Shown here: positions 22,527 through 64,000 of the stretch, piece after piece | How positions within the stretch are numbered: the first letter of the stretch is position 1 | Layout of the letters: each line of letters starts with the position of its first letter | NCBI RefSeq assembly: GCF_902167145.1 | Contig: NC_050096.1 | Location: 265,134,622 to 265,198,621, forward strand | Reading direction: 5' to 3' | Source: Zea mays | Taxonomy: Eukaryota > Streptophyta > Magnoliopsida > Poales > Poaceae | Length of the DNA stretch: 64,000 bases | The notes under the pieces: model-generated | What the model was told of the DNA's origin: nothing | The model's database searches: none | Seen by the model: only the letters and a program-made list of their open reading frames with translations | Program-made: the position numbers and the translations under genes

Positions 22527-23834
22527 TGAAAGGGAATTAGGCTTACACCTAGTTCCTATATAATTTTGGTGGTTGAATTGCCCAACACAAATCTTTGGAC
22601 TAACTAGTTTGCCCAAGTGTATAGATTATACAGGTGTTAAAGGTTCACTTTCAGTCAATAAAAAGACCAAGTGTTGGATTCAACAAAGGAGCAATGAGGC
22701 AACCGAGGGCACCTCTGGCTGGAGGCACCGGACTGTCCGGTGTGCACCGGACAGTGTCCGGTGCGCCCAGAGGACATCAACTCAAACTCCTCGCCCTCGG
22801 GATTTCTCGGAAGCCGGCGCGCTATAATTCACCGGACTGTCCGGTGTGCACCGGACATGTCCGGTGCTCCAAGGAAGCGCGGTCTTCGGAACTCGTCAGC
22901 CTCGGGTTCGCGCGGCAGCCGCTCCGCTAAAATTCACCGGACTGTCCGGTGTGCACCGGACTGTCCGGTGTGCCAGCGGAGCAACGGCTCCCTGCGGCGC
23001 CAACGGCTCCCTGCGGTGCATTTAATGCGCGCGCAGCGCGCGCAGACGTCAGGCTCGCCCATACCGGTGCACCGGACATCAAACAGTACCTGTCCGGTGT
23101 GCACCGGACACCCTGGCGGGCCCACAAGTCAGAAGCTCCAACGGTCAGAATCCAACGGCAGTGATGACGTGGCAGGGGGCACCGGACTGTCCGGTGTGCA
23201 CCGGACTGTCCGGTGCGCCATCGAACAGACAGCCTTCCAACGGCCACTTTTGGTGGTTGGGGCTATAAATACCCCAACCACCCCACCATTCATTGCATCC
23301 AAGTTTTCCACTTCTCAACTACTACAAGAGCTCTAGCATTCAATTCTAGACACACTAAAGAGATCAAATCCTCTCCAATTCCACACAAAGCCCTAGTGAC
23401 TAGTGAGAGTGATTTGCCGTGTTCATTTGAGCTCTTGCGCTTGGATTGCTTCTTTTCTTTCTCACTTGTTCTTGAGATCACAACTCCATTGTAATCAAGG
23501 CAAGAGGCACCAATTGTGTGGTGGCCCTTGCGGGGAAGTTTTGTTCCCGGATTTGATTTGAGAAGAGAAGCTCACTCGGTCCGAGGGACCGTTTGAGAGA
23601 GGGAAGGGTTGAAAGAGACCCGGCCTTTGTGGCCTCCTCAACGGGGAGTAGGTTTGCAAGAACCGAACCTCGGTAAAACAAATCTCCGTGTCTCACTTGC
23701 TTATTCGCTTGGGATTTGTTTTGCGCCCTCTCTCGCGGACTCGTTTATATTTCTAACGCTAACCCGGCTTGTAGTTGTGTTTATATTTGTAAATTTCAGT
23801 TTCGCCCTATTCACCCCCCTCTAGGCGACTATCA
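22527..23834 (+). repeat. 5' LTR of the Sirevirus (1308 bp)
   Basis: TG...CA boundaries. It has at least five blocks of caccggactgtccggtg-type palindromes (near 22727, 22831, 22937, 23066 and 23178), then a TATA box ggctataaatacccc at 23261-23275 that marks the LTR promoter, then a long transcribed leader. Confidence 0.95.
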
Positions 23835-23836
23835 AT

Positions 23837-23848
23837 TGGTATCAGAGC
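23837..23848 (+). other. Primer-binding site (tRNA-iMet type)
   Basis: tggtatcagagc, two bases after the 5' LTR, is complementary to the 3' end of plant initiator methionine tRNA, the usual primer of Ty1/copia elements. Confidence 0.9.
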
Positions 23849-23882
23849 CCGGTGCTTCATTAGAGCCTAACCGCTCGAAGTG

Positions 23883-26429: not shown

Positions 26430-26442
26430 ATTTGTTTTGTAG

Positions 26443-29400
26443 GTTTATGCATCCGGGGGCTCAAGTTGGATACTCGACAGCGGGTGCACAAACCACATGA
26501 CCGGGGAGAAAAGGATGTTCTCCTCATATGAGAAAAACCAAGATCCCCAACGAGCTATCACATTCGGGGATGGAAATCAAGGTTTGGTCAAAGGTTTGGG
26601 TAAAATTGCTATTTCACCTGACCATTCCATTTCTAATGTTTTTCTTGTTGATTCATTAGATTACAACTTGCTTTCTGTTTCCCAATTATGTCAAATGGGC
26701 TACAACTGTCTATTCACTGATATAGGTGTCACTGTCTTTAGAAGAAGTGATGATTCAATAGCATTTAAGGGTGTGTTAGAGGGTCAGCTATACTTAGTAG
26801 ACTTTGATAGAGCTGAACTCGACACATGCTTAATTGCTAAGACTAACATGGGTTGGCTCTGGCACCGCCGACTAGCCCATGTTGGGATAAAGAATCTTCA
26901 TAAGCTTCTAAAGGGAGAGCACATTTTAGGATTAACAAATGTTCATTTTGAGAAAGACAGGATTTGTAGCGCATGCCAGGCGGGAAAGCAAGTTGGAGTC
27001 CATCATCCACACAAGAACATCATGACGACCGACAGGCCGCTTGAGCTACTCCACATGGATCTATTCGGCCCGATTGCTTACATAAGCATCGGCGGGAGTA
27101 AGTATTGTCTTGTAATTGTGGATGATTATTCTCGCTTCACTTGGGTATTCTTTTTACAGGAAAAATCTCAAACCCAAGAGACCTTAAAGGGATTCTTGAG
27201 ACGGGCTCAAAATGAGTTCGGCCTAAGGATCAAGAAGATAAGAAGCGACAACGGGACGGAGTTCAAGAACTCACAAATTGAAGGCTTCCTTGAGGAGGAG
27301 GGCATCAAGCATGAGTTCTCTTCTCCCTACACTCCACAACAAAATGGTGTAGTGGAGAGGAAGAATCGAACTCTATTGGACATGGCAAGGACCATGCTTG
27401 ATGAGTACAAGACACCGGACCGGTTTTGGGCCGAAGCGGTCAACACCGCCTGCTACGCCATCAACCGGTTATATCTTCACCGAATCCTCAAGAAGACATC
27501 ATATGAACTCCTAACCGGTAAAAAGCCCAACATTTCATACTTTAGAGTTTTTGGTAGCAAATGCTTTATTCTTGTTAAAAGAGGTAGAAAATCTAAATTT
27601 GCTCCTAAAACTGTAGAAGGCTTTTTACTTGGTTATGACTCAAACACAAGGGCATATAGGGTCTTTAACAAGTCCACTGGACTAGTTGAAGTCTCATGTG
27701 ACGTTGTGTTTGATGAAACTAACGGCTCTCAAGCAGAGCAAGTTGATCTTGATGAGATAGGTGAAGAACAGGCTCCATGCATAGCGCTAAGGAACATGTC
27801 CATTGGGGATGTGTGTCCTAAGGAATCTGAAGAGCCTCCGCATGCACAAGATCAACCATCCTCCTCCATGCAAGCATCTCCACCAACTCAAAATGAGGAT
27901 GGGGCTCAAAATGATGAAGAGCAAAATCAAGAAGACGAGCCACCTCAAGATGATAGCAATGATCAAGGGGGAGATGCAAATGATCAAGAAAAGGAGGATG
28001 AGGAAGAACCAAGACCGCCACACCCAAGAGTTCACCAAGCAATCCAACGAGATCACCCCGTCGACACCATCCTCGGCGACATTCATAAGGGGGTAACTAC
28101 TCGATCTCGGGTTGCTCATTTTTGTGAACATTACTCTTTTGTTTCCTCTATTGAGCCACACAGGGTAGAGGAAGCTCTCCAAGATTCGGATTGGGTGGTG
28201 GCGATGCAAGAGGAGCTCAACAATTTCACAAGGAACGAGGTATGGCACTTGGTTCCACGTCCTAACCAAAATGTTGTAGGAACCAAATGGGTCTTCCGCA
28301 ACAAGCAAGATGAGCATGGTGTGGTGACAAGGAACAAAGCTCGACTCGTGGCCAAAGGGTATTCACAAGTCGAAGGTTTGGATTTCGGTGAAACCTATGC
28401 ACCCGTAGCTAGGCTTGAGTCAATTCGAATATTATTAGCCTATGCTACTTACCATGGCTTTAAGCTTTATCAAATGGACGTGAAAAGTGCCTTCCTCAAC
28501 GGACCAATCAAGGAAGAGGTCTATGTTGAGCAACCTCCCGGCTTTGAAGACAGTGAGTATCCTCACCATGTTTATAGGCTCTCTAAGGCGCTTTATGGGC
28601 TCAAGCAAGCCCCAAGAGCATGGTATGAATGCCTAAGAGATTTCCTTATTGATAATGGCTTCAAAGTCGGCAAGGCCGATCCTACACTCTTTACTAAAAC
28701 TCTTGAAAATGACTTGTTTGTATGCCAAATTTATGTTGATGATATTATATTTGGGTCTACTAACGAGTCTACATGTGAAGAGTTTAGTAGGATCATGACA
28801 CAGAAATTCGAGATGTCGATGATGGGGGAGTTGAAGTATTTTCTAGGATTCCAAGTTAAGCAACTCCAAGAGGGCACCTTCATTAGCCAAACGAAGTACA
28901 CTCAAGACATTCTTGCTAAGTTTGGGATGAAGGATGCCAAACCCATCAAGACACCCATGGGAACAAATGGGCATCTCGACCTCGACACGGGAGGTAAGTC
29001 CGTGGATCAAAAGGTATACCGGTCGATGATTGGTTCATTGCTTTATTTATGTGCATCTCGACCGGACATTATGCTTTCCGTTTGCATGTGTGCAAGATTC
29101 CAATCCGACCCTAAGGAATCACACCTTACGGCCGTAAAACGAATCTTGAGATATTTGGCTTATACACCTAAGTTTGGACTTTGGTACCCTCGGGGATCCA
29201 CATTTGATTTGATTGGTTATTCGGATGCCGATTGGGCGGGGTGCAAAATCAATAGGAAGAGCACATCGGGGACTTGCCAGTTCTTGGGAAGATCCTTGGT
29301 GTCTTGGGCTTCAAAGAAGCAAAATTCGGTCGCTCTTTCCACCGCCGAAGCCGAATACATTGCCGCAGGTCATTGTTGCGCGCAATTGCTTTGGATGAGG

Positions 29401-29688
29401 CAAACCCTGCGGGACTACGGTTACAAATTAACCAAAGTCCCTTTGCTATGTGATAATGAGAGTGCAATCAAAATGGCCGACAATCCCGTCGAGCATAGCC
29501 GCACCAAGCACATAGCCATTCGGTATCATTTTCTTAGGGATCACCAACAAAAAGGGGATATCGAGATTTCTTACATTAATACTAAAGACCAATTAGCCGA
29601 TATCTTTACCAAGCCACTTGATGAACAATCCTTTACCAGACTTAGGCATGAGCTCAATATTCTTGATTCTAGGAATTTCTTTTGCTAG
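26443..29688 (+). CDS. pol: Sirevirus Pol polyprotein (protease, integrase, RT, RNase H)
   Basis: The open frame reaches up to 26443, just after an in-frame TAG (26440-26442). Its first ATG is 26497, which lies after the protease active-site triplet DSG ('WILDSGC'), so translation must begin upstream of that ATG by some other route. Counting from that ATG, the integrase zinc module HHCC is at 123-160 and the integrase core D188, D251 and E287 follow. Reverse transcriptase has 'YVDDIIFG' near 747, and RNase H has 'DADWAGC', 'STAEAEYIA' and '[14 protein letters not shown]' near the end. All catalytic motifs look intact. The frame differs by +1 from gag, and the two do not overlap. Confidence 0.92.
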
Positions 29689-30453
29689 TTTGCACACATA
29701 GCTCATTTGACTACCTTTTGATCATATCTCTTTTATATGCTATGACTAATGTGTTTTCAAGTCTATTTCAAACCAAGTCATAGGTATATTGAAAGGGAAT
29801 TGGAGTCTTCGGCGAAGACAAAGGCTTCCACTCCGTAACTCATGCTTCGCCATCACTCCGAGCAACTCTCTATTCCTTGGGGAGAAATGAGCATCAAAGA
29901 AGAGGGCTCTAATGATTCCGTTTTTGGCGATTCATGCCAAAAAGGGGGAGAAATGAGCCCAAAGCAAGAGGACCGCACCACCACCAATTTCAAAAATTAG
30001 TGTTTTCCAAAAGTATTTATCAATTGGTATCCTATTGTGTTCAAAAGGGAAGAAAGTAGTATTTTTAAAATATATATCAAAACCCTCTTGATCACTAAGA
30101 GGTGGATCTCCTTTAGGGGGAGTTTTGTTAAGTCAAAGGAAAAGCATTTGAAACAGGGGGAGAAAAATTCAAATCTTAAAAATGCTTTTGCAAACTCCTA
30201 TTCATTTACCTTTGACTATTTGCAAAAGATCTTTGAAATAGATTTACAAAAGGATTTGCAAAAACAAAACATGTGGTGCAAACGTGGTCCAAAATGCTAA
30301 ATAAGAAAGAAACATTCCATGCATATCTTGTAAGTAGTTTTATTGGCTCAATTCCAAGCAACCTTTACACTCACATTATGCAAACTAGTTCAATTATGCA
30401 CTTCTATATTTGCTTTGGTTTGTGTTGGCATCAATCACCAAAAAGGGGGAGAT
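29689..30453 (+). other. Sirevirus 3' internal region with repeated polypurine motifs
   Basis: Non-coding stretch between pol and the 3' LTR. Polypurine-like aaaaagggggaga-type motifs recur near 29878, 29938, 30115, 30155 and finally at 30440-30453, directly next to the LTR, where the last acts as the polypurine tract. Repetition of this motif is a described Sirevirus trait. No envelope-like frame is present; the 87-codon frame at 30037 has no recognisable domain. Confidence 0.8.
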
Positions 30454-31762
30454 TGAAAGGGAATTAGGCTTACACCTAGTTCCTATATAATTTTGGTGGT
30501 TGAATTGCCCAACACAAATCTTTGGACTAACTAGTTTGCCCAAGTGTATAGATTATACAGGTGTTAAAGGTTCACTTTCAGTCAATAAAAAGACCAAGTG
30601 TTGGATTCAACAAAGGAGCAATGAGGCAACCGAGGGCACCTCTGGCTGGAGGCACCGGACTGTCCGGTGTGCACCGGACAGTGTCCGGTGCGCCCAGAGG
30701 ACATCAACTCAAACTCCTCGCCCTCGGGATTTCTCGGAAGCCGGCGCGCTATAATTCACCGGACTGTCCGGTGTGCACCGGACATGTCCGGTGCTCCAAG
30801 GAAGCGCGGTCTTCGGAACTCGTCAGCCTCGGGTTCGCGCGGCAGCCGCTCCGCTAAAATTCACCGGACTGTCCGGTGTGCACCGGACTGTCCGGTGTGC
30901 CAGCGGAGCAACGGCTCCCTGCGGCGCCAACGGCTCCCTGCGGTGCATTTAATGCGCGCGCAGCGCGCGCAGACGTCAGGCTCGCCCATACCGGTGCACC
31001 GGACATCAAACAGTACCTGTCCGGTGTGCACCGGACACCCTGGCGGGCCCACAAGTCAGAAGCTCCAACGGTCAGAATCCAACGGCAGTGATGACGTGGC
31101 AGGGGGCACCGGACTGTCCGGTGTGCACCGGACTGTCCGGTGCGCCATCGAACAGACAGCCTTCCAACGGCCACTTTTGGTGGTTGGGGCTATAAATACC
31201 CCAACCACCCCACCATTCATTGCATCCAAGTTTTCCACTTCTCAACTACTACAAGAGCTCTAGCATTCAATTCTAGACACACTAAAGAGATCAAATCCTC
31301 TCCAATTCCACACAAAGCCCTAGTGACTAGTGAGAGTGATTTGCCGTGTTCATTTGAGCTCTTGCGCTTGGATTGCTTCTTTTCTTTCTCACTTGTTCTT
31401 GAGATCACAACTCCATTGTAATCAAGGCAAGAGGCACCAATTGTGTGGTGGCCCTTGCGGGGAAGTTTTGTTCCCGGATTTGATTTGAGAAGAGAAGCTC
31501 ACTCGGTCCGAGGGACCGTTTGAGAGAGGGAAGGGTTGAAAGAGACCCGGCCTTTGTGGCCTCCTCAACGGGGAGTAGGTTTGCAAGAACCGAACCTCGG
31601 TAAAACAAATCTCCGTGTCTCACTTGCTTATTCGCTTGGGATTTGTTTTGCGCCCTCTCTCGCGGACTCGTTTATATTTCTAACGCTAACCCGGCTTGTA
31701 GTTGTGTTTATATTTGTAAATTTCAGTTTCGCCCTATTCACCCCCCCTCTAGGCGACTATCA
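30454..31762 (+). repeat. 3' LTR of the Sirevirus (1309 bp)
   Basis: Offset 7927 bp from the 5' LTR. The short frames in both copies translate identically. The only difference I see is one extra C at about 31740-31747. It contains the same palindrome blocks and a TATA box near 31190. Confidence 0.95.
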
Positions 31763-32332
31763 AGTACTTATTTTGTTGATGTTAAGACTAAGTTGTATAA
31801 GCTATATTCGAAGTATGAAACTAAGTTTGGTGCTGCTAGGCCATCCAGAACCACACATCAATCAGGTATGACAGGTAAGAGAAAGCAGGCATGGGGTAAA
31901 ATTTTTGGAGGAACAGGTGCTTCTAGATCCTCAACTGCATCAGGTTCTTCAGGTAGTAGTGGACCTGGTGTGGGTCTTTGTGAGCTAACTGTTTACCTTG
32001 ACAGTAACAATGTGGCTGTCTATGAGGATGATTTTGATATCTTAAATTGGTGGCATGAGCATAAACTAACCTATCCAATTCTTTCAATTATGGCTAGAGA
32101 CATTATGTCTGTTTCTACCTCAACTACTTCTTCAGAGTCTACTTTCAGTTTGTCTGGCAGGATTATTGAGGATCGGCGACGACGCTTGAACTCAGAGACA
32201 GTGGAGATGTTGGTGTGCATCAAAGATTGGGAGCTAGGCCAACAGCGGGCACAACATGCTATGGTGGACAATGAATTAGAGGAGTCCTTCAAGGAGCTGT
32301 GGCTGGATGAACGAAGGTGCTGGTGCTACTGA
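31763..32332 (+). pseudogene. hAT transposase, 3' part with dimerisation domain
   Basis: This continues the reading frame interrupted at 22526 ('TYFVDVKTKLYKLYSKYETKFG'). It carries the hAT C-terminal dimerisation domain: 'DDFDILNWWHEHKLTYPILSIMARDIMSV', then 'TTSSESTFSLSGRII' and 'RRRLNSETVEMLVCIKDW'. A stop follows at 32330-32332. These motifs are the best evidence for the hAT family. The domain mediates multimerisation of transposase, but here it is separated from the rest by 9.2 kb. Confidence 0.85.
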
Positions 32333-45698: not shown

Positions 45699-46982
45699 AT
45701 GGCGGCCGAGGCGCTGGGGTTCATGGCGCGGGGAGCCACCGGCGGGAGGGCGGCGGAGCTCGTCACCAGGGACTTCCTCGGCGGGTGCGCCGCCGCCGAA
45801 GACGACGCCAGGGACGCGTCCGCCAGGAATGACGCCGTGGTAAGCACCTCGGCCCCGTGCTGTCTTTGAATTCGCAAAGCCTCTCTGTTCTCTGCTCTCC
45901 CCTGCCTCTGCGTGTGATGTGCCTGTGCATGCTCGCCTTCGGATCGGACCCGCTTGCTGATGTTGCTTGATTGAATTGGAAGAGCGCACCTTGACCTTGG
46001 TGTTCATAAGTTTTTCGAAGAAGGAAGAACTTTCTTCGCTTTCTCCAACGTGGAAAAGTCTTGGTCCGAGGCCTCCATCCAAGACGACTATTCTGCTATA
46101 GCCTATAGTATCCAGTTTGGATTTGCAAGTGGTCAATAGTAATATTAGTCCAAATTCCATTCCCTCGTGATCAGAATTTTATATGAAACATGTTGCTCTA
46201 CCAGAACCATTAAACATTCCCACTAAACTAAACGCGAAATACTAAAATCTGTACTTGCACATGCATGCTGTCCTTTTTTGTGCTTTATTATCTATAATCA
46301 CAATCAGTTGTGATTATAGAAGAATTTACTAGCACATCAGTAGCTGCATTAGCTTACGCTTATCTATAATCACAATCAGTTGTACTTGCTCTAGTTGAGA
46401 AACGAAGCTAATGTTTTTTTTTTGTGCGCCCACGTGCAGCCCGCGAGGGTGCACCAGCAGAAGCACGCGTGCCCGGCGGCGCCGAGGGACCTGAACCTGT
46501 TCCCGGTAGCCGCCACCACGAAGCCCTGCGCCGCGACGGCGGCAGCGGCAGCGGCACCAGCGGTCGCGGGCGGCGCCACGGCTACGTACCACAGCGTGTG
46601 CACGATCGAGAAGGTGAAGACGGCCCTGGAGCGGTTCGAGCGCGGCAGGCAGCACCAGTCCCCGCACCCGCACCAGCAGCAGCAGCACAGCGGCGCGGGC
46701 GCGTCCCCGTCGTCGTCTTCCGTGACCACGTCCTCCGTGAAGCGCCGCGGCGGCGGCGGCGGCGGCGGCGGCGGCGTGGAGCAGGGCGACGGCTGCGACT
46801 CGCCCTCCGGCGGCGGGATGGTGGCCGCGGCGTGCCCCAGGTGCTTCCTGTACGTGCTAATCTCCCGGAGCGACCCGCGGTGCCCGCGCTGCGAGTCCCA
46901 CGTCCCGGCCCCGCCGGCGCCAGCGCCGGCCGCGAGCAAGAAGCCGCGGATCGACCTCAACGTCGGCTACCTGGGCACATAG
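45699..46982 (+). CDS. DLN/EAR-motif protein with paired CPRC motifs (227 aa)
   Basis: Two exons, 45699-45839 (47 codons) and 46440-46982 (180 codons plus stop), are joined in phase 0. The intron has gtaagc at its 5' end and a T-rich tract with gtgcag at its 3' end. The protein has 'RDLNLFP' near residue 64, 'YHSVCTIEKVKTALERFER' at 97-115, histidine/glutamine, serine and nine-glycine low-complexity runs (117-159), a CX2CX12CX2C cluster at 179-198, and a C-terminal 'KKPRIDLNVGYLG'. DLN motifs often recruit TOPLESS-type co-repressors, and the cysteine pairs suggest a small zinc ribbon. It resembles plant proteins such as Arabidopsis At1g16500/At1g79160 or GIR-like repressors as I recall, with no proven function. 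A nuclear, repressor-associated role is inference. Confidence 0.82.
46289..46383 (+). repeat. Hairpin and direct repeat in the intron
   Basis: tctataatcacaa and ttgtgattataga form a perfect 13-bp inverted repeat with a 4-base loop (46291-46320). A 23-base stretch, tatctataatcacaatcagttgt in part, recurs 72 bp downstream (46289-46311 and 46361-46383). It lies about 60 bp before the 3' splice site. Confidence 0.8.
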
Positions 46983-49546
46983 CTTGTGGTTTAGGCATAT
47001 GGGGCGATGGCGTAGCCTCCTAGATGGAGCGGCTGCCGTCTCCTACCGTACCGTACGTGACGCCATAAATTTTGCTTAGGCTCGTGTAATGTGATGACCC
47101 ACGGACCGAGTCGGGTACGTAGGAGTACGTAGACAGGGGAGGGGGGCGCCGTTTTTTGAACTGAAACAGAAATGCATGCCCTCCCCTGTCAGGAAATTTA
47201 TGGCCGATCAGACACCGCATACAAGAACATGAATGAATGGTGACACTGCTTTCTGTTCCTGCTCCTGTAGAACCAGACAATCCCGCAGCCACAATTGGTC
47301 AAAGCTGCTATACTTGTCGATCTAGCATGTTCGAGCTCCGTGGTGGTGGTGGTGGTGGAGATGTTTGCAAATTGTAAGCTTGGATGTGCCGCCGCCGCCG
47401 CCGCCGCCGCCGCCGTCCCATGGGCGCATGGCCTAGTGTCCCTAGTCGCCGTCGGTCGCAGCGGTGCCAAGGCCCAAGCGCTTGGCGTTCGTGTTCTCTC
47501 GTCTCCTGCGGCCGGCCGTTTTAATGCCAAGGGCAGGGAGTTGACGTCGCGGGCGCAGAGGCAGGCACGTCGTCGGAGCAGATCACTCCTCCGGCCTTGT
47601 GACCGGCGTGAATGCGAGTTTTAATGACGCGATGGCGATGGGTGTCCGTGCCCTTGGTCGCGGAAAGAGAGGCGGGCGAGCCCTGCCGGCTGGCTGCCGT
47701 TTTCAGCCGCAGCGGGGGCGTAATTGCGCGCAGCAGGCGCTGGCCGCCGCGCCGCGCCGCGCGTGAACTCTACAAGTCGTCGTGGCATTATTATTATTTA
47801 TTGGAGTGGAGGTGAGTCAGGCAGGCATTACCGTTTCCGTTTGTTCACGTCCCCCCCTAGTACGTACGGTACCACGAGCATTCCTGCAGATACGATCGGA
47901 GCGGGACCGTATCCCCCCGTGCTTGCCATCAATAATGTTGCAGTACGTGTCTGCGCTGCGCCTGCGGCCTTGATTGCGCAATCGTTCGTGCTGTTGGCGT
48001 GCCGGATCAGCGCGCCTTATTAAACACGCCGCGCGGCACGGCTGCACCTGCACGGGCGTGTACTTGTACCGGTCTAGTATTTCGTGGACGAGATCTGCGT
48101 ACGGCGTACCGGGCACACGGGGCGTTTTGAGCGACACGCCCGGCCCAGCTTCTTCGCTGCACGGCGGATTGCTGGTCGACGACAGGTTGGCCCAAACCGA
48201 GGACCGTGGCGCCGAACAAAAGGCCGGCCCGCGTGAACGAGCCGCAAAGTGGGCGTAAAGGGCCCAACTCGACTTGGAGTTGGCAACGAATCGGGAAGTT
48301 TGGTCCAGCCCAGAATCTAAAATCATAACCCTTTTCGTTCATTCATTCATTCATTCATTCATTCATTTATCTATCTATCTATCTAATCCAGCGTCGCCGC
48401 CTACTGAACTTAGTACAGTGCCCTTCCGTTGCAACTTGCGTTGTTCCATAAAATGTCCCAAAAACTTTAAGAGTCAAATATCATGCCCATTTCCCATCAT
48501 TTTTCAGTAATCCATACAATGGTTACACCTCAGATTATGATGTCAAGGAGAAATGAAGAAACGTCAGGAATAAGACATCGGTATCTAAATACATCAGTAT
48601 ATACATACATTGATGTTCTACCGAATGGAATTCTCAGGTACTGGAAAATATTCTTTTGATGTTACTGTCTTATACATGACTCATATTCCATGGTGATGCG
48701 GCCGACGATCTCACCGACATCCCAACAGGAGGCTTACGCACCTCGTGCTTGACATACGCTTGGTGGTTTATTTGGAGCATAATGCTTGACGATGGAAACT
48801 CTGCTTCAAAGAAGTAGATATTTCATTTTTTTTAATAATAAGTTAACACTAAAATTATTCCCATGCATAAATCTTTTTCTTTTTTTATTTAACCGTGTCT
48901 AAGCACGGTTGTTTATATTAATAAGACCGACAGCGTTACGACTCACGGTTACTAAGGTCAACACGATACTTGTAGATACTTGTACGACTAATCATACAAA
49001 CCATGACCAACACGATACGTACGGCTTCATTTTGCGAAGCCAATGGTTGAGAGCGCGTCTGCAATGCCTATTGCAAGAATACAAATAAAGAAAAGACTAT
49101 GGATGATGAACATGTATTCTTTCTGGTTTGCAGTGCGTGCATTATATATTGAGAAAATTATGTCACAATCATGTATTCTTTCTCCATATCCGTATGTCAC
49201 TATGATTTTGTTGAGTACTTTATTTGTCATTATAGATGTTATAATTCCTTCTCTATAACACTCGGATACTTTTTTTTTACTCTTTCATGCATGTTATTAC
49301 TACAAGTGATATCCTTAATTATATGTCACTGGTGATGACATGGAAATGTAAAAAGTTATATCCGACTAACATAGAATATATTAGGAAATTTACGATGATA
49401 AATAAAATATTGAACAAAATTACAACGTTTACAGACAATTGACTTCGTATTATTTGTGACAAACTGTCACACCCGCGCCCGCCCTGGCAGGCAGGCACCA
49501 GACAGTACACAGAACGGTGATCTGGTCTGTAGAATACAGCGGCCGT
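46983..49546. other. Intergenic; 3' region and microsatellites
   Basis: The gene's 3' UTR probably lies in 46983-47300. Simple repeats are (GGT)n at 47339-47356, (GCC)n at 47388-47416, (TTCA)n at 48336-48366 and (TCTA)n at 48367-48385. GC-rich frames at 47295-47624 and 47817-48326 (minus) lack domains. Positions 48400-49470 are AT-rich with nothing recognised. The last part (about 49460-49546) would be the 3' UTR of the split SAUR gene. Confidence 0.5.
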
Positions 49547-49585
49547 CTACCTGCTGGCCATGCACGCCAGACCCATGAGCTGCTG
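49547..49585 (-). pseudogene. 3' end of the split SAUR gene
   Basis: Read on the minus strand from the CACTA target duplication (cag, 49585-49583), the text gives 11 more codons, 'QLMGLACMASR', and a stop (49549-49547). The frame matches the SAUR coding part at 55812-56081, where the same cag triplet closes codon 90. This fragment is therefore the original C-terminus, now 6.2 kb away and beyond stop codons. Confidence 0.8.
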
Positions 49586-49915
49586 CACTACAGTAAACGA
49601 GGAAATTTCCGACGGCTAAAACCGTCGGACATAAGAACTAAACCGTCGGAGATAAGCTATGTCCGACGGCATTAACTTATCTCCGACGGTTTTAAGCCGT
49701 CGTGGATAACGCGTCGGAAATAGCATTATGTCCGACGGCTGCCGTCGGACATAGCGTATGTCCGACGGCCCTATCCAACCGTCGGAGATAAGGCGGAGTA
49801 ACCGTTTTAACCGCTGCCTGGGCCCACAACTACTATGTCCGACGGTTTAAAGCCGTCGGACATAACACAAACCTTATGTCCGACGGCCTAAACTAAGCCG
49901 TCGGACATAACGTTT
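49586..49915. repeat. Left subterminal repeat array of the CACTA
   Basis: About a dozen tgtccgacgg / ccgtcggaca / ccgacggt motifs in both orientations, some paired as short inverted repeats (for example atgtccgacggtttaaagccgtcggacat at 49833-49863). Such motifs bind the CACTA-encoded DNA-binding protein in related elements. Confidence 0.85.
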
Positions 49916-50204
49916 TTCAGAAATTGCACAAAAATCTGAATTTTAAAAAATCTGATATTTGCAAATACAAAACAGAATTCATACACATATACACATTCAC
50001 ATTAACAAATATACTCACATAAGTATACACATTCACAAATATAATCACATAAGCATTCACATTCACAAAATTTAACATAACAACATAGTTCCAAAAGGTT
50101 CCAATAAGTGTTTACATAAACATAGTTGTCCAAACTCCAAAATGAACATTATTCGACGGGTAGGCTTTCACATGAAAGGTTTCAACAAGTGTTTTACATC
50201 AGTA

Positions 50205-52683
50205 TCACTCATATCCATCGCCACCTCCTCCGGCTGGACTATGCGTGCTGAAAAGATTGTTCACCCACGAATGTGTTGTGTCGTCCTGACCAGACCCATC
50301 TCCAGGTGCGGCAACTGAAGCGGGTGGTGTCTGAAATCCCTATAACACAAGCACATGAAATAGTAACCACTCAGTTGTTCATTTAAACACATAAGACATC
50401 TATGAACATGTCACACACGCATATGTGTACATACCATAGGGAATTGTGACGGAGGCGGAGGCGGTGGTGGAGGCGCCAACATTGGCATTGGCAGTGCAAA
50501 GTCCGGAGGCGGCATCCCATATGTCGGCATCGGGACGCCCGCTTGTTGGGCTAGTTGCTACAAATTATATACAAGTCATTGTTGAGCAAACAAGATACAC
50601 ATCAAGTGTTTTGCAAAATAAGCTACAAAATGTTAGTTCAACTTACCGAGAGAAGAGCTTGATTTTGGGCCTGGAGGCTTGCATAATACTCGTCCCTCTT
50701 CTTCTGGTACTCGGCTTGTTGTCTCTGGTATTCAGATTGTTGCCTCTGGTACTCCAATTGATCCCTCAAGACTGATTGATGGTACTCTGCCTGTTGACGC
50801 AACACCGCAAGCTCTATCTCATGGGCTGCTGATCGTGAACGGGACGACTGTGAAGACGACGATGTGGATTGTCGTCCACGGCGTCTCAGCTCTCTGGAAT
50901 CAATCGTAGAATCAAAAATACCCAACCTACAAGAGTGAACCATGCACTTAGTATAGTAACTCATGCCTCAGTTGAATCGCAAGCATATGATGACAATTTT
51001 GAAAACCAAATCAAATAATCTCACCGTCCATGGGCTTGTCCTCCTGCACTAGCATATGCTGCCTGAGGGTCGATTGGCTGGCTCCTCCAATCGTACTCCT
51101 CCCCATGGCGTTGAACCATCTCCTGCCCATACGAAGCCTGGAGGCAAACAATATCAAATATAAGTGCATAACCCTATGCCATTGCAAACAATATCAAACA
51201 CATAATAGAGTATCAAAAACTCACTAGACGGTCGGTGGCCGTCTGAGTGCATAACACATCAGGATTCTGAGGATCAGAACCCCTATGGCCTTGCATATAC
51301 ACCTCCACATCCGTGGGCGTACGGCCGGATTTGACTTCCTGTACATAAAAGTTATATTGACACATTTCTATGTAATTCAAAGTTACGACAAACTGAGACT
51401 TACCATTCGCTTAGCCAAGCGCACATGACCATCACCGCCGTAGTTGTGGAACGACTCAGTTCCACGGTTTCCCCTGTTCCTTTCGGAAATGGCACGAAAC
51501 TCAGGGGAACCCCACCATCTGCACAATGCCCGATAACCGTCTGATCGGGTGGCCATCCACGGCACCGACACCTACATGAAATTTTTTAAATAAAGCAAGC
51601 AAATACATGGCTTCGTGCGATATGAGAGGCAACAACCTGTTTACCTCTAGGTATTGCTCCTCCGTCAAGTAAATTGATGACCACTCGGCCTTTGTATTTG
51701 GCATCGGTCGATCATCAGCATTTGCTCTGTACCATGCCTTTATAGCCTGAATTCGTGCATAGTACATTGCATCTGCAACGACATCGTTCGCGTTATACTC
51801 AAACACGTAACGAGCGTTCATATCATATGATCCATCGTCCGACAACTTGTACCGTTTCTGCAAAAACCATAGTGTTATCATAAAAGCAAACATATATGGA
51901 ATAACTAAAATAGTATAAACAAGTCATACCCAGAATGCATCCCAAACTAGTGCTTGTGTGTTGCCAAACGTTCTACAGACACCATAGCGATAATGCTCCC
52001 AAGTGGTGGCGGGGACAGACTCGCCAGTAGGCAAAGTCACAAGACCAGGCCAGTGTAGACGAACAAGATTACCAAGAACCATGTTCACCTGCCTGTAGTG
52101 TCCTGTGCCTGTGAACGAGTCGTCGATCCAAGTCTTGCAAACAGAAATCAATGTAGAAATTAAAACATAACTTTCAATAACATTTAAGCAAAGATATGTC
52201 ACTCACTTTCCACTAGGCTTTATCACAACCCGAGATTCGGGTGGAAGCTCTGGAGGTGGTCCAACAAAATGCAGCTTCCTCGTTCTCTTAACTCGAGAAG
52301 TTCCAGACCCAGCTGCAGAATCTCCACCAGCCCCAGAATCCCCAGCCCCAGAATCTCCACCAGCGTCGTCTCCAGCTTCATCTCCCACATTATCTCCACC
52401 ATCATCTTCATCATCATCTCTTGCATGATCCTCTACCACTGGTTCCTCAATTTCAGCATCCTATGAAACAAATAACTTACATCATACAATATTAAGTAAC
52501 TCAAATAATGTAATTTAACAACTAACTTACATCTTGTGGAGGCAAATGTTCTGCCAGCGCTCTCCGTCTGCTCATGGTAGAACCTGTGCCCTGAAAAACT
52601 GAATCCTCACCCCTCGAGCTGCTCCTCGAGCTACTCCTCGACCCAAGCAAACTACGAGCTAAAGACTTCATTTTCTTTGACAT
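50205..52683 (-). CDS. Ptta/En-Spm-type CACTA protein, multi-exon
   Basis: The likely ATG is at 52683 ('MSKKMKSLARSLLGSRSSSR'), 100 bp after the end of the TNP2-like frame. Exon 1, 52683-52531, ends at gtaagt. Exon 2, 52460-52207, is acidic ('DDDEDDGGDN' and GDSGAG repeats). Later exon-like blocks are near 52145-51935 ('TWIDDSFTGTGHYRQVNMVLGNL'), 51857-51645 ('NARYVFEYNANDVVADAMYYARIQAIKAWY', 'LTEEQYLEV'), 51570-51405 ('RWWGSPEFRAISERN'), 51342-51228, 51138-51026, 50930-50646 (EYQRQQ coiled coil), 50555-50436 (proline-rich) and about 50342-50205 (stop 50207-50205). This is the domain order of Transposase_24-like proteins. The exon 2/3 join does not fit the expected frame by one base, so a splice detail or a small mutation is unresolved. 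Confidence 0.65.
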
Positions 52684-52783
52684 CCTATTTTAACAAAAAC
52701 AAGTTAGTACATAAATCGACAATAAAATAATAAAATATGCAATAAAATCATAAAATATGCAATAAAATCATGATCCATACTCG

Positions 52784-54352
52784 TCAATCGTAATCGTAAT
52801 CAAAATCAGGATCTAGTTGCTTTCGTCGATTTAATGGACGCCAAGTAGCTTTCTTCTTTCTCGTCACTCGTTTTCTTTTTGGAGGAACCTCTACATCATT
52901 TTGATCGCCTAATAAAGATTCTTCCAACATTTCAGTTTGTACATTAAACGTGCTTGTAAGTTCTTCATCTTGGAAAATCTCAGCAGCCCCCACTTCCTGC
53001 TCGATTTGACTTTCAACATAACCAGCATCACCAGGAGCATATAGTCGTTCACGAGGATTAACTTTGTACACTACCCTCCAATCAACCAAACCGTTTTTCT
53101 TAGATGGATATGTCATATAATACACCTGCTCGCATTGGTGGGCAAGGATTATAGTGTCGTGGCCTTTTAATCTATCGTTGTGTTTGACTTCAACCATGCC
53201 ATATTGATTTTCTCGCGTTGTATTTGGGGAAAACCAATCACAATCGAAGAACACCACTTTGAGTTGTTTATCTCCAAAAAACTTGTATGGAACAGCAAAG
53301 ACGGGCCAACATGAGTACGACGTTGCAGTTACATTGAATGGCGAGAAACCATCTGTTGCCAAACCGAAGCGGACATTCCGCACTTCATCAGCAAAGCTGG
53401 AATCAAAAGCATCTAGTGCCTTCCATGCATCTGTATCAGCTGGGTGCACCATGACATTTGGATTCTCACGTACCCCTTCTTTGTGCCACCTCATGTGTCT
53501 GGCTGTATTCTTGGAGATGAACAAACGTTTCAACCGAGGTATGAGAGGCATGTAACGAAGCTGCTTACGTGCAATCTTCGTAGTCACGGTCAAACCATCG
53601 TCATTTTCAACCTCAACGAATCTACGCTCACCACATACAGTACACTTCTTCTCACCTGCGGTCTCCTTCCAGAAAAGCATACAATTATTTTCACAGACAT
53701 CGATTTTTTCGTAGTCCATACCGAGGCCAGATAACAGTTTTTTAGACTGATACATGTCCTTTGGCATCTTGTGATTCTCCGGAAGTACATCACTGATCAA
53801 GTTCAAAAGTTCCTTGTAACAGTTGTTTGAGAATGCAAACTTAGACTTAATAGCCATAAGTCGAGTCACAAATACAAGGACGGTCACTTTTGTGTGCTCA
53901 TGCAACGGCTCTTCGGCAGCTTTAAGGAGCTCGAAGAACTTCTGAACCTCAGGTGTAGCTGGATCCTCAAACTCGGTGGGTTGACCGGGGTTCTCCGAAT
54001 CGACGGTTAGAAACTCATGGCGTACATCGTCAAGCATCTCTTCCATCCTATCGTAGTCCTCCTCTTCATGTGACTGAACTTCCGATACAATACGAGGAGG
54101 TGGGTCCTCACCGTGGTGCACCCACACCTCATAGCCTGGCATATAACCGTTCTTGCAAATATGTATCGACATAGTCCTCCTGTCAAGGAAATTAATGTTC
54201 CGACACTTGCTACAAGGGCACCTAACATCGGTTCCAGTCTCTGACCGAGCGAAAGCATGGTCGAGAAAAGCATCAGTCTTGGCCACCCACTCACTTGATA
54301 GAGCACCTCTTTTCTTCCAACCTTCATACATCCATCGACGATTCTCCTCCAT
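52784..54352 (-). CDS. TNP2-like transposase, internally deleted but open (522 aa)
   Basis: One uninterrupted frame. Residues 1-80 are the transposase-associated domain ('RRWMYEGWKKRG...WVAKTDAFLDHAF' with 'CPCSKC' at 45-50 and a later HHG). About 200-352 is the N-terminal part of the Transposase_21 domain ('MYQSKKLLSGLGMDYEKIDVC.NNCMLFWKE', 'KCTVCGERRF', 'FGLATDGFSPFN', 'SYSCWPV'). From about 358 the text jumps to a DUF4216-like C-terminal part ('LKVVFFDCDWF', 'YGMVEVKHNDRLKGHD', 'CEQVYYMTYPS'), then a basic tail. The rest of Transposase_21 is missing, with the join near 53285. A normal TNP2 protein is far longer. It keeps an intact frame, so it could make a truncated DNA-binding or regulatory protein; that is inference. 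Confidence 0.85.
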   Translation of the reverse strand: MEENRRWMYEGWKKRGALSSEWVAKTDAFLDHAFARSETGTDVRCPCSKCRNINFLDRRTMSIHICKNGYMPGYEVWVHHGEDPPPRIVSEVQSHEEEDYDRMEEMLDDVRHEFLTVDSENPGQPTEFEDPATPEVQKFFELLKAAEEPLHEHTKVTVLVFVTRLMAIKSKFAFSNNCYKELLNLISDVLPENHKMPKDMYQSKKLLSGLGMDYEKIDVCENNCMLFWKETAGEKKCTVCGERRFVEVENDDGLTVTTKIARKQLRYMPLIPRLKRLFISKNTARHMRWHKEGVRENPNVMVHPADTDAWKALDAFDSSFADEVRNVRFGLATDGFSPFNVTATSYSCWPVFAVPYKFFGDKQLKVVFFDCDWFSPNTTRENQYGMVEVKHNDRLKGHDTIILAHQCEQVYYMTYPSKKNGLVDWRVVYKVNPRERLYAPGDAGYVESQIEQEVGAAEIFQDEELTSTFNVQTEMLEESLLGDQNDVEVPPKRKRVTRKKKATWRPLNRRKQLDPDFDYDYD

Positions 54353-54466
54353 ACTAGATACGAGACGTTAACTTAATTAGATAAGTAATGCACGGACCAT
54401 CCGTTTTTACGAAGAAATCACGCCCCTACATCTGTAGGAAAGGATAGGTCCTAAACCCACCCAGGA

Positions 54467-54645
54467 GTGACCGACGAGGCCGTGTTTATGACAAGACATG
54501 TGGTCGTGCGAAATTTCGGCAGCATAACCCCGCTGTTCTCCAATCGCACGCCTAAAAATGGTGCAATTGGAGAACAGAGAGGTTATGCTGCCGTAACTAA
54601 GCAGGAGCACATGCTTTTGTCATAAACACGGACTCTGTCGGTCAC
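54467..54645. repeat. Long foldback upstream of the TNP2-like frame
   Basis: Left arm 54467-54549 and right arm about 54562-54645 are inverse copies with a few mismatches. Shared blocks include gtgaccgac, ccgtgtttatgacaa, cggcagcataacc and ctgttctccaat. The loop is roughly 12-28 bases. It lies between the TNP2-like ATG and the likely start of transcription, so it may be in the leader RNA. Confidence 0.8.
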
Positions 54646-54673
54646 ACCAAGGCTGTCCAATAAAGGGACAATT

Positions 54674-54724
54674 TCGGCCCAACATACCTCACATGCGTCG
54701 CTTGTAAGGTGTGTTGGGCCGAAA
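54674..54724. repeat. Second short foldback
   Basis: tttcggcccaacatacct... pairs with ...aggtgtgttgggccgaaa across a short centre. It is adjacent to the longer foldback. Confidence 0.75.
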
Positions 54725-55179
54725 CGGGTGACGCCTAGGTTTCGTTTGTTCACACTACGATACACTATGATTAACTATAATCATCGTGCATTATTAAATA
54801 ATTAAACTAATAAACCACAATACAATATTACATACGAAATAACATTGTTATAAATGACAAATCATATAAAATGACCTTATTTCCGAGGGCATAATAATTA
54901 CCCTCAGAAATTAAAAATTTAAATTATCTAAAGTACCACTAAATAAACTAAAACAAGCTACTTTAATTACGTAATCAAATTTTGGGCGTCGGACATAACA
55001 AACTAAACAATCAAATGCATTCATACATACATTTCTAATCAAATACATTAATACAAACATACAATTCTAATCAAATACATTAATACAAGCATACAATTTT
55101 AATAAACAAAATTGCTAATTAAGTATACTCACTTAGCGGGTGTGGAGAGACGGCCGGTGATGGGTGCACGGGCGGGCGG

Positions 55180-55545
55180 CGGGCGCACGGGGCCGTTGGC
55201 CGGAGCACGGGGCGGCGGCGACCGTCGAACGGGGCGGCGGCGGCGCCGGAGCACGGGGCGGAGCTCGGGGCGGTGGCGGCCGGAGCACGAGCGTGGCGGC
55301 GGCGGCACGAGCGTGGCGGTGGTGGCCGGAGCACGAGCGTGGCGGTGGCCGGAGCACGAGCTCGGGGCGGTGGCGGCAGGACCAAGGGGCGGCGGCGGCC
55401 GGAGCACGAGCAGTGGGGGCGGGCGGTACGGCGACCGGGCGGGACGGCGACGAGCGTGGCGGCGACGAGCGTGGCGGCGACGGCGCGGCGTGCTCCTCGG
55501 ACGGCGGCGGCGGCAGAGAGAGAGAAACGGCTGGGTGAAACTGAA
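55180..55545. repeat. GC-rich minisatellite in the CACTA 5' region
   Basis: Imperfect repeats of ggcggccggagcacgagcgtggc-type units, giving long but meaningless open frames on both strands (55112-55798 plus; 55119-55407 minus). Confidence 0.85.
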
Positions 55546-55569
55546 GGCGCGCGGGTCGGATCCGCGCGT

Positions 55570-55811
55570 TAAAAAGCCTTATGTCCGACGGCTCGGTACG
55601 AGGCCGTCGGACATAAGCTTATGTCCGACGGCCAGGGTGCAAGCCGTCGGACATAAGGTAATGTCCGACGGCCAGTCTGACAGCCGTCGGCTGTTTTCCG
55701 TTATTTTCGACGGCCGCTGTTGGCCGTCGGACATACCCTTATGTCCGACGGTTGCCTATAGGGCCGTCGGACATAATACGACCGTCGGAATATTATAGTT
55801 TTACTGTAGTG
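55570..55811. repeat. Right subterminal repeat array of the CACTA
   Basis: Paired ttatgtccgacgg...ccgtcggacataa units, each a short inverted repeat, run up to the terminal repeat. It mirrors the left array at 49586-49915. Confidence 0.85.
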
Positions 55812-56081
55812 CTGGAAGCGGCGGGCGTCGCAGGGGATCCGCAGCACGCCGGGCTGCCCGTACCCATACAGCCGCTCGGCCATCTCCAGCAGCTCCACCA
55901 TGCGAGGCTCCTTGAGCAGCGCCACCGGCACGAGGATCCTCTGTTGCTCCTTGCTGCCGCCGACGAGCCGCATGGGTACGTACCCTCTGGGCATCGTCGC
56001 CCCGTCGCCGGCGCGCACCGGCGAGGAGCCCTTGCTCGTCGTTGCCGCTTGCTTTCCCCACAGAACCTTCGCCTTCGCCAT
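55812..56081 (-). pseudogene. SAUR gene, 5' 90 codons, split by the CACTA
   Basis: Small auxin-up RNA protein. The start is the ATG at 56081. The SAUR core has 'PRGYVPMRLVGG' (31-42), 'ILVPVALLKEPRMVELLEMAERLYGYG' (49-75) and 'GVLRIPCDARRFQ' (78-90). SAURs are single-exon, auxin-responsive proteins of about 100 residues that in known cases inhibit PP2C.D phosphatases and promote cell expansion. The intact gene would have had 101 codons (90 here plus 11 at 49550-49582). The present frame runs on into the CACTA end for 36 foreign residues to a stop at 55701-55703, so a chimeric protein of 126 residues is possible. The core is complete, so function may not be fully lost. Confidence 0.9.
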
Positions 56082-56202: not shown

Positions 56203-56211
56203 TTTATATAG
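56203..56211 (-). promoter_or_regulatory. TATA box of the split SAUR gene
   Basis: On the minus strand the text reads tctatataaacg, 122 bp upstream of the ATG at 56081, a normal distance for a plant gene with a leader of about 90 bases. An (AAGG)n microsatellite follows upstream at 56221-56247. Confidence 0.65.
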
Positions 56212-56247: not shown

Positions 56248-56610
56248 GGTGACGGCGGGATTTGTCAAGGCTGTCGTAGAACGACGCTGCTGGCTGCGCA
56301 AAGAAGTGCATTGGATTGGAGAGCAGGTCTTTGTCGGCTCGTGTGCAGACGCTTTGCACACGATGACACGACCACGCTGACGGCTTTCGATCGTGACGAA
56401 ACGTGATAAAACCTGCCGTTAGGTGCGTAGCCAGGATTTTTTTTTTATAAAAGAGATCATAAACAATATTTAATAGATTATATATAGTATATGAGTGTCT
56501 GATTTCAGTTTAAATTTAACTTCATATACTATATATTTTTATCAGACGCACAAACGAAGAAATAACTGAATCAATCACTGTTTTTATATACGTAACTACT
56601 TAAAAATTAG
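56248..56610. other. SAUR upstream region, nothing further recognised
   Basis: Possible promoter DNA of the split SAUR gene, turning AT-rich after 56430. No recognised auxin-response element cluster or transposon end. Confidence 0.4.
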
Positions 56611-56694
56611 TACTTCCTCCGTTTCTTTTTATTAGTCGCTGGATAGTGTAATTTTACACTATCCAGCGACTAATAAAAAGAAACGGAGGGAGTA
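56611..56694. mobile_element. Very short Stowaway-type MITE (84 bp with flanks)
   Basis: A near-perfect palindrome: cctccgtttctttttattagtcgctggatagtgtaa against its inverse, with a 2-base loop. TA flanks on both sides (56611-56612 and 56693-56694). The (c)ctccgtttc... ends and TA target are typical of Stowaway (Tc1/mariner) MITEs. Confidence 0.8.
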
Positions 56695-56880
56695 TGTATT
56701 TATATGTATGTACAAACCTTAGGGGCCAGGGTCTGCCTGCCGTTTCTACACCTCAGGCTACCAGCTAGCTGTTGCTGTCACCAACTTTAGTTTTCGTCCG
56801 TGGACCCGCGCGGATTGGAATGGAACGAGCAAAACAAAACTATCAGAGAGTAGTAAGTAACTTGTAAAGATGCACCGTTA

Positions 56881-63256: not shown

Positions 63257-63583
63257 TCAGGCTGACGAGCTGATGATGCCGCGTCGGTGCATGGCGCCGT
63301 GGAGGACCTGGCGGAAGCGGCCCGCGTCGCAGGGCACCCGCAGCACGCCCGGCTGGCCGTACCCGTACCGCTGCGCCGCCATGTCCAGCAGCTCCGCGAC
63401 GGAAGGGTCGCTGAGAAGCGTCACCGGCCCCAGCACCCGCTCGCCGACGTCTACCGCGTCGTCGTCCTCGCCGGCGGCCAGCATCGGGACGTGCCCTCTC
63501 GGGACCTTCTCCTGCTCGGCCGCGCCCCGGATGGGCGACTGCGACTCCCCGCCGCCGCCGCGCTTCTTCTTCCACGACACCAT
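63257..63583 (-). CDS. SAUR family protein (108 aa)
   Basis: Single-exon, intact. The start is the ATG at 63583 ('MVSWKKKRGGGG'), with a TATA box 148 bp upstream. SAUR core motifs are 'KVPRGHVPM' (about 26-34), 'GPVTLLSDPSVAELLDMAAQRYGYGQPGVLRVPCD' in parts (51-86), and 'GRFRQVLHGAMHRRG' at the end. The core closely parallels the split SAUR gene at 55812-56081, so the two are probably tandem paralogs, once about 7 kb apart. Likely an auxin-responsive growth regulator acting on plasma-membrane proton-pump control through PP2C.D phosphatases, by family knowledge. A CACTA element begins 36 bp upstream of the TATA box. Confidence 0.92.
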   Translation of the reverse strand: MVSWKKKRGGGGESQSPIRGAAEQEKVPRGHVPMLAAGEDDDAVDVGERVLGPVTLLSDPSVAELLDMAAQRYGYGQPGVLRVPCDAGRFRQVLHGAMHRRGIISSSA

Positions 63584-63771: not shown

Positions 63772-64000
63772 CACTAGTAGAAAAGAGCTCAAAGCCTGCG
63801 GCACCCATAAATTATCACTGGTGGTTTCAGTTATCACGCGCCAGTAAAAAAAACAAGGTGGACCCGACTTAGGAACCGCCAGTGGAAACCCATTTTCACT
63901 GGCGGTTCTGTTACACCAACCGCCAGTGGAAATAGGGTATTTCCACTGGCGGTTGGTGTAACAGAACCGCCAGTGAAAATCTATTTCCACTGACGGTTGG
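63772..64000. mobile_element. CACTA element, left end (cut by window)
   Basis: Starts cactagtagaaaagagctc, preceded by tgc. Subterminal motifs ccactggcggttggtgtaac / gttacaccaaccgccagtgg recur in both orientations and form a long inverted repeat (about 63893-63979). Unlike the CACTA at 49586, whose subterminal motif is tgtccgacgg, so it is a different family. The rest lies outside the window. Confidence 0.8.

What the first reader, a model, noticed from the sequence alone, without database searches (positions are those of the whole stretch)
49547..56081. A CACTA transposon splits a SAUR gene exactly between codons 90 and 91
The ctg target duplication flanking the 6.2-kb CACTA is the cag codon of the SAUR frame. 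Joining the flanks without the element and one duplication gives a continuous 101-codon SAUR frame ending in TAG. With the insertion, the SAUR core stays intact and the frame runs into the CACTA end for 36 more codons. The insertion may therefore create a chimeric SAUR and replace its 3' UTR, where SAUR mRNAs often carry an instability element.
Basis: partly seen in the sequence, partly recalled or inferred. Interest (0 to 1): 0.75.

Follow-up and report, generated by a model that had tools for sequence, protein, structure and literature searches.

The report
Jumping gene splits maize auxin-response gene
In what is almost certainly a maize genome, a 6.2-kb CACTA jumping gene has cut a small auxin-response (SAUR) gene just before its last eleven codons, most likely weakening or killing that copy while two intact copies remain on another chromosome; it is a clean but ordinary kind of mutation.

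Summary
A 6,226-bp CACTA element (49586-55811, CTG target duplication) interrupts a minus-strand SAUR gene between codons 90 and 91. Joined, the flanks give a 101-codon frame. Two contig-C5 copies in the same genome align through the junction without a gap, and end in the same 11 residues. A database protein without an intact match in this genome (P0010) equals the last 53 residues of the joined frame, so insertion-free alleles probably exist.

The 36-codon run into the element is real, and a database protein (P0001) has it with one change. But the tail belongs to this CACTA family's end: 28 of 29 readable genomic copies, this one included, have it, without sign of codon-level constraint. Read-through RNA folds into very strong hairpins (-142 kcal/mol). 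No ATAGAT instability motif was found in the displaced 3' flank or the C5 3' UTR. The last conserved SAUR segment is cut off, so the core is not fully intact. Most likely this is a loss-of-function or weak allele covered by two intact copies; that effect is inferred.

The parts
55812..56081 (-). SAUR gene, codons 1-90 (codon 90, CAG, is one target-duplication copy)
   Evidence: PF02519 E 2.4e-12; aligns with the C5 SAUR copies
49547..49582 (-). SAUR gene, severed codons 91-101 (QLMGLACMASR) and TAG stop
   Evidence: same residues in L002/L003 and in P0007, P0008, P0010
49586..55811 (-). CACTA (EnSpm) element, 6,226 bp, main frames in the same direction as the SAUR
   Evidence: termini and TSD; PF13963, PF02992, PF13952; right end found in 29 other fetched loci of the own genome at 85-97% identity
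49583..49585 (.). target-site duplication CTG, left copy
55812..55814 (.). target-site duplication CTG, right copy
49586..49597 (+). left terminal inverted repeat (12 bp identical to the right one)
55800..55811 (-). right terminal inverted repeat
49609..49904 (.). left subterminal repeats, 13 CCGACGG/CCGTCGG sites
55585..55788 (.). right subterminal repeats, 10 CCGACGG/CCGTCGG sites
55701..55811 (-). 36-codon tail (HYSK...GRRK) and TAA stop added to the SAUR frame by the element end
   Evidence: 36 codons in 28 of 29 readable copies, this one included
55574..55772 (-). two strong hairpins (55623-55772 and 55574-55620) that read-through RNA would form; the new stop is in the apical loop of the first
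   Evidence: -142.4 kcal/mol for 55570-55811, 200 shuffles mean -73.1 sd 5.0, z -13.8; positions
52784..54352 (-). 522-codon internally deleted tnp2 frame (Transpos_assoc, positions 2-61 of 213 of Transposase_21, DUF4216)
   Evidence: about 1,895 bp shorter here than the C4 copy L043
50638..50964 (-). Gln-rich frame of the element, probably part of its second gene
   Evidence: 96% over 47 residues to a Zea mays protein, P0111, that also holds part of the tnp2 frame
49250..49546 (-). displaced SAUR 3' flank, now more than 6.2 kb from the rest of the gene
   Evidence: aligns with the C5 3' UTR for about 60 nt after the stop; no ATAGAT
56203..56210 (-). SAUR TATA box (TATATAAA), intact
   Evidence: conserved in the C5 copies

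Best explanation
A non-autonomous CACTA element, an internal-deletion copy of a multi-copy family, inserted into the single-exon SAUR gene between codons 90 and 91 and duplicated CTG (shown). The SAUR TATA box and first 90 codons are untouched in sequence. Any transcript must leave the SAUR within its last conserved segment and enter the element's right end, where the frame happens to stay open for 36 codons (shown as sequence). That end is a dense array of inverted repeats, so the RNA forms very strong hairpins with the new stop in a loop (computed); this should hinder translation and invite small-RNA silencing (inferred). The protein loses its last 11 residues, including the conserved QLMGL, and gains a basic tail. 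The most likely net effect is a loss-of-function or weak allele, tolerated because two intact copies lie on C5 (inferred). Excision could in principle restore it.
For: Termini, TSD and frames; two C5 copies colinear through the site from upstream of the TATA box to about 60 nt past the stop; P0010, identical over the last 53 residues of the joined frame, with no intact match in this genome (best by score 87% on C5; 93% over its residues 3-60 at the window locus); P0001, a database record of the chimera; internal deletion against P0024/P0079 and L043; hairpins; conserved QLMGL removed. In Arabidopsis SAUR63, 8 of 24 six-residue block substitutions, m15 and m18 among them, lost the root phenotype in one assay (passages of PMC9522268).
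Against: No expression, methylation or small-RNA data, so loss of function is not shown. The 90 codons hold no stop or frameshift and score almost as well for PF02519 as the joined frame (47.4 against 49.4 bits), so a working shortened SAUR is possible. SAUR N- and C-terminal parts vary, and large C-terminal fusions leave SAUR63 active (PMC9522268 passages); most of its block substitutions kept the root phenotype, and replacing m12 or m13 did not eliminate function. P0001 and P0010 are protein records from a jgi source; their plant of origin is inferred.
Confidence: 0.78

Rival explanations
1. The insertion makes a working chimeric SAUR: residues 1-90 plus a basic 36-residue tail, perhaps longer-lived than the normal protein, under the unchanged SAUR promoter.
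For: Open frame in phase 0; the same chimera in a database record with no change in the 90 SAUR residues and one in the tail (Y108H); large C-terminal fusions stabilise SAUR63 and make it active (passages).
Against: The tail RNA folds at -142 kcal/mol; a 3xHA fusion left SAUR63 with a half-life of about 10 min (passage); the tail shows no codon-level constraint among copies (synonymous:nonsynonymous single-step variants 8:18 in frame, 5:21 and 8:13 in the other two frames); QLMGL is lost.
Confidence: 0.12
2. One reading: loss of a SAUR mRNA instability (DST) element stabilises the transcript.
For: The 3' flank is displaced by 6.2 kb; DST elements in SAUR 3' UTRs are documented (PMC10675480 passages); two loose GAT-N-GTA matches lie in the displaced flank.
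Against: No ATAGAT in the displaced flank or in the C5 3' UTR; the loose form is at chance level.
Confidence: 0.05
3. The locus was already a pseudogene, or the 11-codon tail is unrelated sequence that merely falls in frame.
For: No positive evidence found in these calls.
Against: Alignment without a gap at the junction with L002/L003, including the stop; identity of P0010 over 53 residues; no other stop or frameshift in the joined frame.
Confidence: 0.02

Closest known systems
CACTA (EnSpm, DTC) DNA transposons of grasses
   Same: CACTA termini, 3-bp target duplication, subterminal inverted repeats, tnp2 (PF02992), Transpos_assoc and DUF4216 domains
   Different: This copy keeps only profile positions 2-61 of 213 of tnp2, so it should need a helper element (inferred)
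CACTA insertions in plant pigment genes (soybean R locus PMC4219821, raspberry Ans-1 PMC11790086; listing and start of abstract only)
   Same: A CACTA element within a gene, changing its function
   Different: Here the cut is 11 codons from the end, in phase with a 36-codon open element end; no phenotype known
[quoted passage not shown] SAUR40-like grass proteins
   Same: Domain, uninterrupted frame in the C5 copies, PRGYVP and GVLRIPCD stretches, 76% identity over 95% to a Miscanthus SAUR40-like protein (P0004)
   Different: C-terminus severed and replaced by element sequence

Membership tests
CACTA transposon | 5'-CACTA...TAGTG-3' terminal inverted repeats | tested here: met
   12 identical terminal bases
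CACTA transposon | 3-bp target-site duplication | tested here: met
   CTG/CTG; with one copy removed the alignment with C5 has no gap there
CACTA transposon | subterminal repeats at both ends | tested here: met
   13 and 10 CCGACGG-type sites
CACTA transposon | tnp2-type transposase domain | tested here: met
   PF02992 E 2.2e-19, partial: profile positions 2-61 of 213
autonomous CACTA element | complete tnp2 gene | tested here: not met
   internal deletion against P0024/P0079 and L043
SAUR gene | Auxin_inducible domain in an uninterrupted coding frame | tested here: met
   PF02519; continuous frame in L002/L003
SAUR gene | DST instability element in the 3' UTR (a feature of many members, not a condition) | tested here: not met
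   no ATAGAT; loose form at chance level
SAUR gene | rapid induction by auxin | not testable with these tools
   no expression data; no TGTCTC in 1,019 bp upstream, one CCGACA (TGTCGG)

The most novel reading that the evidence does not exclude
The ends of this CACTA family act as ready-made C-terminal tails: an insertion in phase 0 with this end adds much the same 36-residue basic peptide to any frame, and in the SAUR case this yields a translated, longer-lived chimeric growth regulator that segregates among maize lines.
Probability: 0.08. Interest if true: 0.55.

Novelty: new member of a known kind. Interest (0 to 1): 0.3.

Why it matters
It is a cleanly delimited insertion allele in a gene of a growth-related family, with two intact copies in the same genome as controls and a probable insertion-free allele elsewhere. 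It would allow a direct test of what the last 11 residues of a SAUR do, and of whether read-through into a hairpin-rich transposon end silences a gene. Annotation may list the 126-residue chimera as an ordinary SAUR: one source names P0001 'SAUR family protein'. By itself it is an ordinary event.

Tried and rejected
DST loss: scanned the displaced flank and the C5 3' UTR, ATAGAT not found. Intactness of the core by structure: AlphaFold2 models of the chimera (mean pLDDT 51.7) and of intact P0007 (57.1) are too poor to compare; the only solved-structure hit at E <= 1 was an unrelated design at E 0.37, so no fold search was run. DNA of an empty site in other lines: the SAUR part and the empty-site pattern gave nothing in viral contigs, and the element-end pattern nothing in viral contigs or prokaryote genomes; these collections are not of plants, so this says little. 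A conserved peptide in the element's tail: rejected, no codon-level constraint. P0010 as the second SAUR of this window: rejected, the SAUR at 63257-63583 is a different gene, 46% identical over 95 residues. The same deletion in related copies: the five copies that I fetched whole (L043-L047, chosen by right-end identity out of 29) all differ from the window copy at that place; the other 24 were not looked at whole. In one search loci on the minus strand were not turned; one search repeated the count correctly and is the one cited. Of the 30 right-end loci (the window's own, L013, included) L041 had no recognisable end and was dropped, leaving 29. Only 40 of 886 first-look candidates were scored, so the copy number is a lower bound.

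Full report
What is there. The element spans 49586-55811 (6,226 bp), has 12 identical terminal bases, 13 and 10 subterminal CCGACGG-type sites and a CTG duplication. It lies inside a minus-strand SAUR frame between codons 90 and 91. Removing the element and one CTG gives 101 codons ending in QLMGLACMASR and TAG; keeping it gives 90 + 36 codons. Pfam gives PF02519 for the SAUR part and PF13963, PF02992 and PF13952 for the element's main frame.

Organism and place. The window lies at C1:265134622-265198621 of a 2.18-Gb genome in 655 contigs. Maize is inferred from a Zea mays record 94% identical over 160 residues of the element's tnp2 frame (P0111) and from the genome's size.

The empty site. 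The SAUR part finds itself (100%) and, next best, two loci on C5 (80% over 234 of 267 bases); 11 matches in all. Both C5 loci encode a 108-residue SAUR ending in EQLMGLACMASR. They align with the joined flanks without a gap at the junction; the alignment (70% identity, 19% gaps, the gaps mostly upstream and in the 5' part of the frame) runs from upstream of the TATA box to about 60 nt past the stop. Over the last 54 codons, stop included, 154 of 162 nt agree, with 3 synonymous and 5 nonsynonymous codon differences. The two C5 copies lie in a repeated block, 99.7% identical over at least 4,013 bp (cut by the end of my fetch) and 11 kb apart. I call them homeologous because further SAUR matches sit near both places; wider synteny was not tested.

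Other records. Among 20 protein hits, P0001 is the chimera with one change, Y108H, in the tail. P0010 (69 aa) is identical to the last 53 residues of the joined frame. A search of the own genome with P0010 gave 45 matches but no intact identical copy: 87% on C5, and 93% over its residues 3-60 at the window locus. P0010 therefore probably comes from an insertion-free allele of another Zea plant; its plant of origin is not recorded.

The tail. In this copy only phase 0 gives the 36-codon tail at this end; phases 1 and 2 give 5 and 2 codons. In other copies phase 1 gives 5, 23 or 39. Of 30 fetched right-end loci, the window's included, 29 have a readable end; 28 of these have a 36-codon tail in phase 0 and one has 19. 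Four of the 29, the window included, have an ATG-started host frame of at least 60 codons running into it in phase 0. Two of the other three are copia-like: L027 differs from P0022 by one residue in its host part, and P0022 carries PF07727; L024 resembles the gag frame of the window's own copia element (my reading). The host frame of L019 was not identified and may be spurious. The protein search with the tail alone found three records, P0001, P0021 and P0022. Single-step codon variants among copies are 8 synonymous to 18 nonsynonymous in frame, 5:21 and 8:13 in the other frames: no sign of constraint. The tail is a by-product of the subterminal repeats.

RNA. The 242 nt of the right end fold at -142.4 kcal/mol against -73.1 (sd 5.0) for 200 shuffles, none as low; the new stop codon lies in the apical loop of the main hairpin, 55623-55772. 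With the SAUR part included the z-score is -10.4. Effects on translation, small RNAs or methylation are inferred.

The element. Its tnp2 frame is identical to P0024 over residues 8-356 and 99% identical to P0079 over 354-522; most of the domain that P0024 carries is missing between them, without loss of frame. The C4 copy L043 is 98.7% identical over 3,455 bp and 98.6% over 2,534 bp on the two sides, 94.2% over the first 326 bp, and about 1,895 bp longer at that place. At 1.3e-8 substitutions per site and year (recalled), 1.3% divergence puts the shared ancestor of the two copies near 0.5 million years ago. This suggests a young insertion but is no strict bound on it.

What it does. PMC9522268 (passages only): N- and C-terminal parts of SAURs vary; large C-terminal fusions stabilise SAUR63; a 3xHA fusion had a half-life of about 10 minutes; of 24 six-residue block substitutions m2, m3, m8, m9, m11, m13, m15 and m18 lost the root phenotype in one assay, m7 gave no protein, and m13 was active in another assay. 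By the stated scheme m18 is residues 104-109 (my arithmetic); I could not align that block with this protein. PMC10675480 (passages only) gives the DST motifs used here. On this evidence loss or weakening of function is likeliest, with the C5 copies as cover.

In print. Searches for SAUR with CACTA and maize (20 of 56 papers seen in the listing), CACTA truncation or chimeric transcripts (12 of 45), CACTA read-through (12 of 14), SAUR with transposon insertion (12 of 191) and CACTA fusion proteins (none) showed no report of this allele by title or start of abstract. One paper was checked by passages (PMC11440433); its CACTA mention is a reference to ZmCCT. The library lacks most subscription journals.

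Noticed in passing
63257-63583 (-): A second, divergent SAUR gene (108 codons, 46% identical over 95 residues); further SAUR matches at C1:265219713, 265322962 and 265327160 suggest a local cluster, with matches on C5 at 15730907, 15741965 and 15818409.
   Followed up: partly
63772-64000 and beyond: Another CACTA-like end (CACTAGTAGAAAAGAG, GCCAGTGG-type repeats) begins about 36 bp upstream of the second SAUR's TATA box, so both SAURs here may be hit by CACTA elements. No match to its first 10 or more bases in reverse was found in the next 19 kb; one 8-base match at C1:265209856 was not examined.
   Followed up: partly
L009/L010 (C5:15727001-15745000): The intact SAUR on C5 is duplicated in a block of at least 4 kb, 99.7% identical, 11 kb apart, in the genome whose C1 copy is broken: dosage compensation or coincidence.
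   Followed up: partly
56592-56713: Near-perfect palindrome about 0.5 kb upstream of the SAUR start, Stowaway-like (name recalled); Rfam MIR1120 72.6 bits, below its cut-off of 86.
   Followed up: no
54448-54669 and 54672-54724: Two hairpins inside the element upstream of the tnp2 frame; the longer matches Rfam MIR869 at 57.8 bits, far below its cut-off of 330. Possible small-RNA source.
   Followed up: no
46395-46982 (+): Gene-like frame with a GIR1-type zinc ribbon (PF24747), 2.6 kb from the severed SAUR end.
   Followed up: no
22527-31763: Copia element with RVT_2 and integrase domains and LTRs 99.9% identical over 1,310 bp, so probably very young; a frame with a hAT dimerisation domain lies at 31643-32332.
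   Followed up: no
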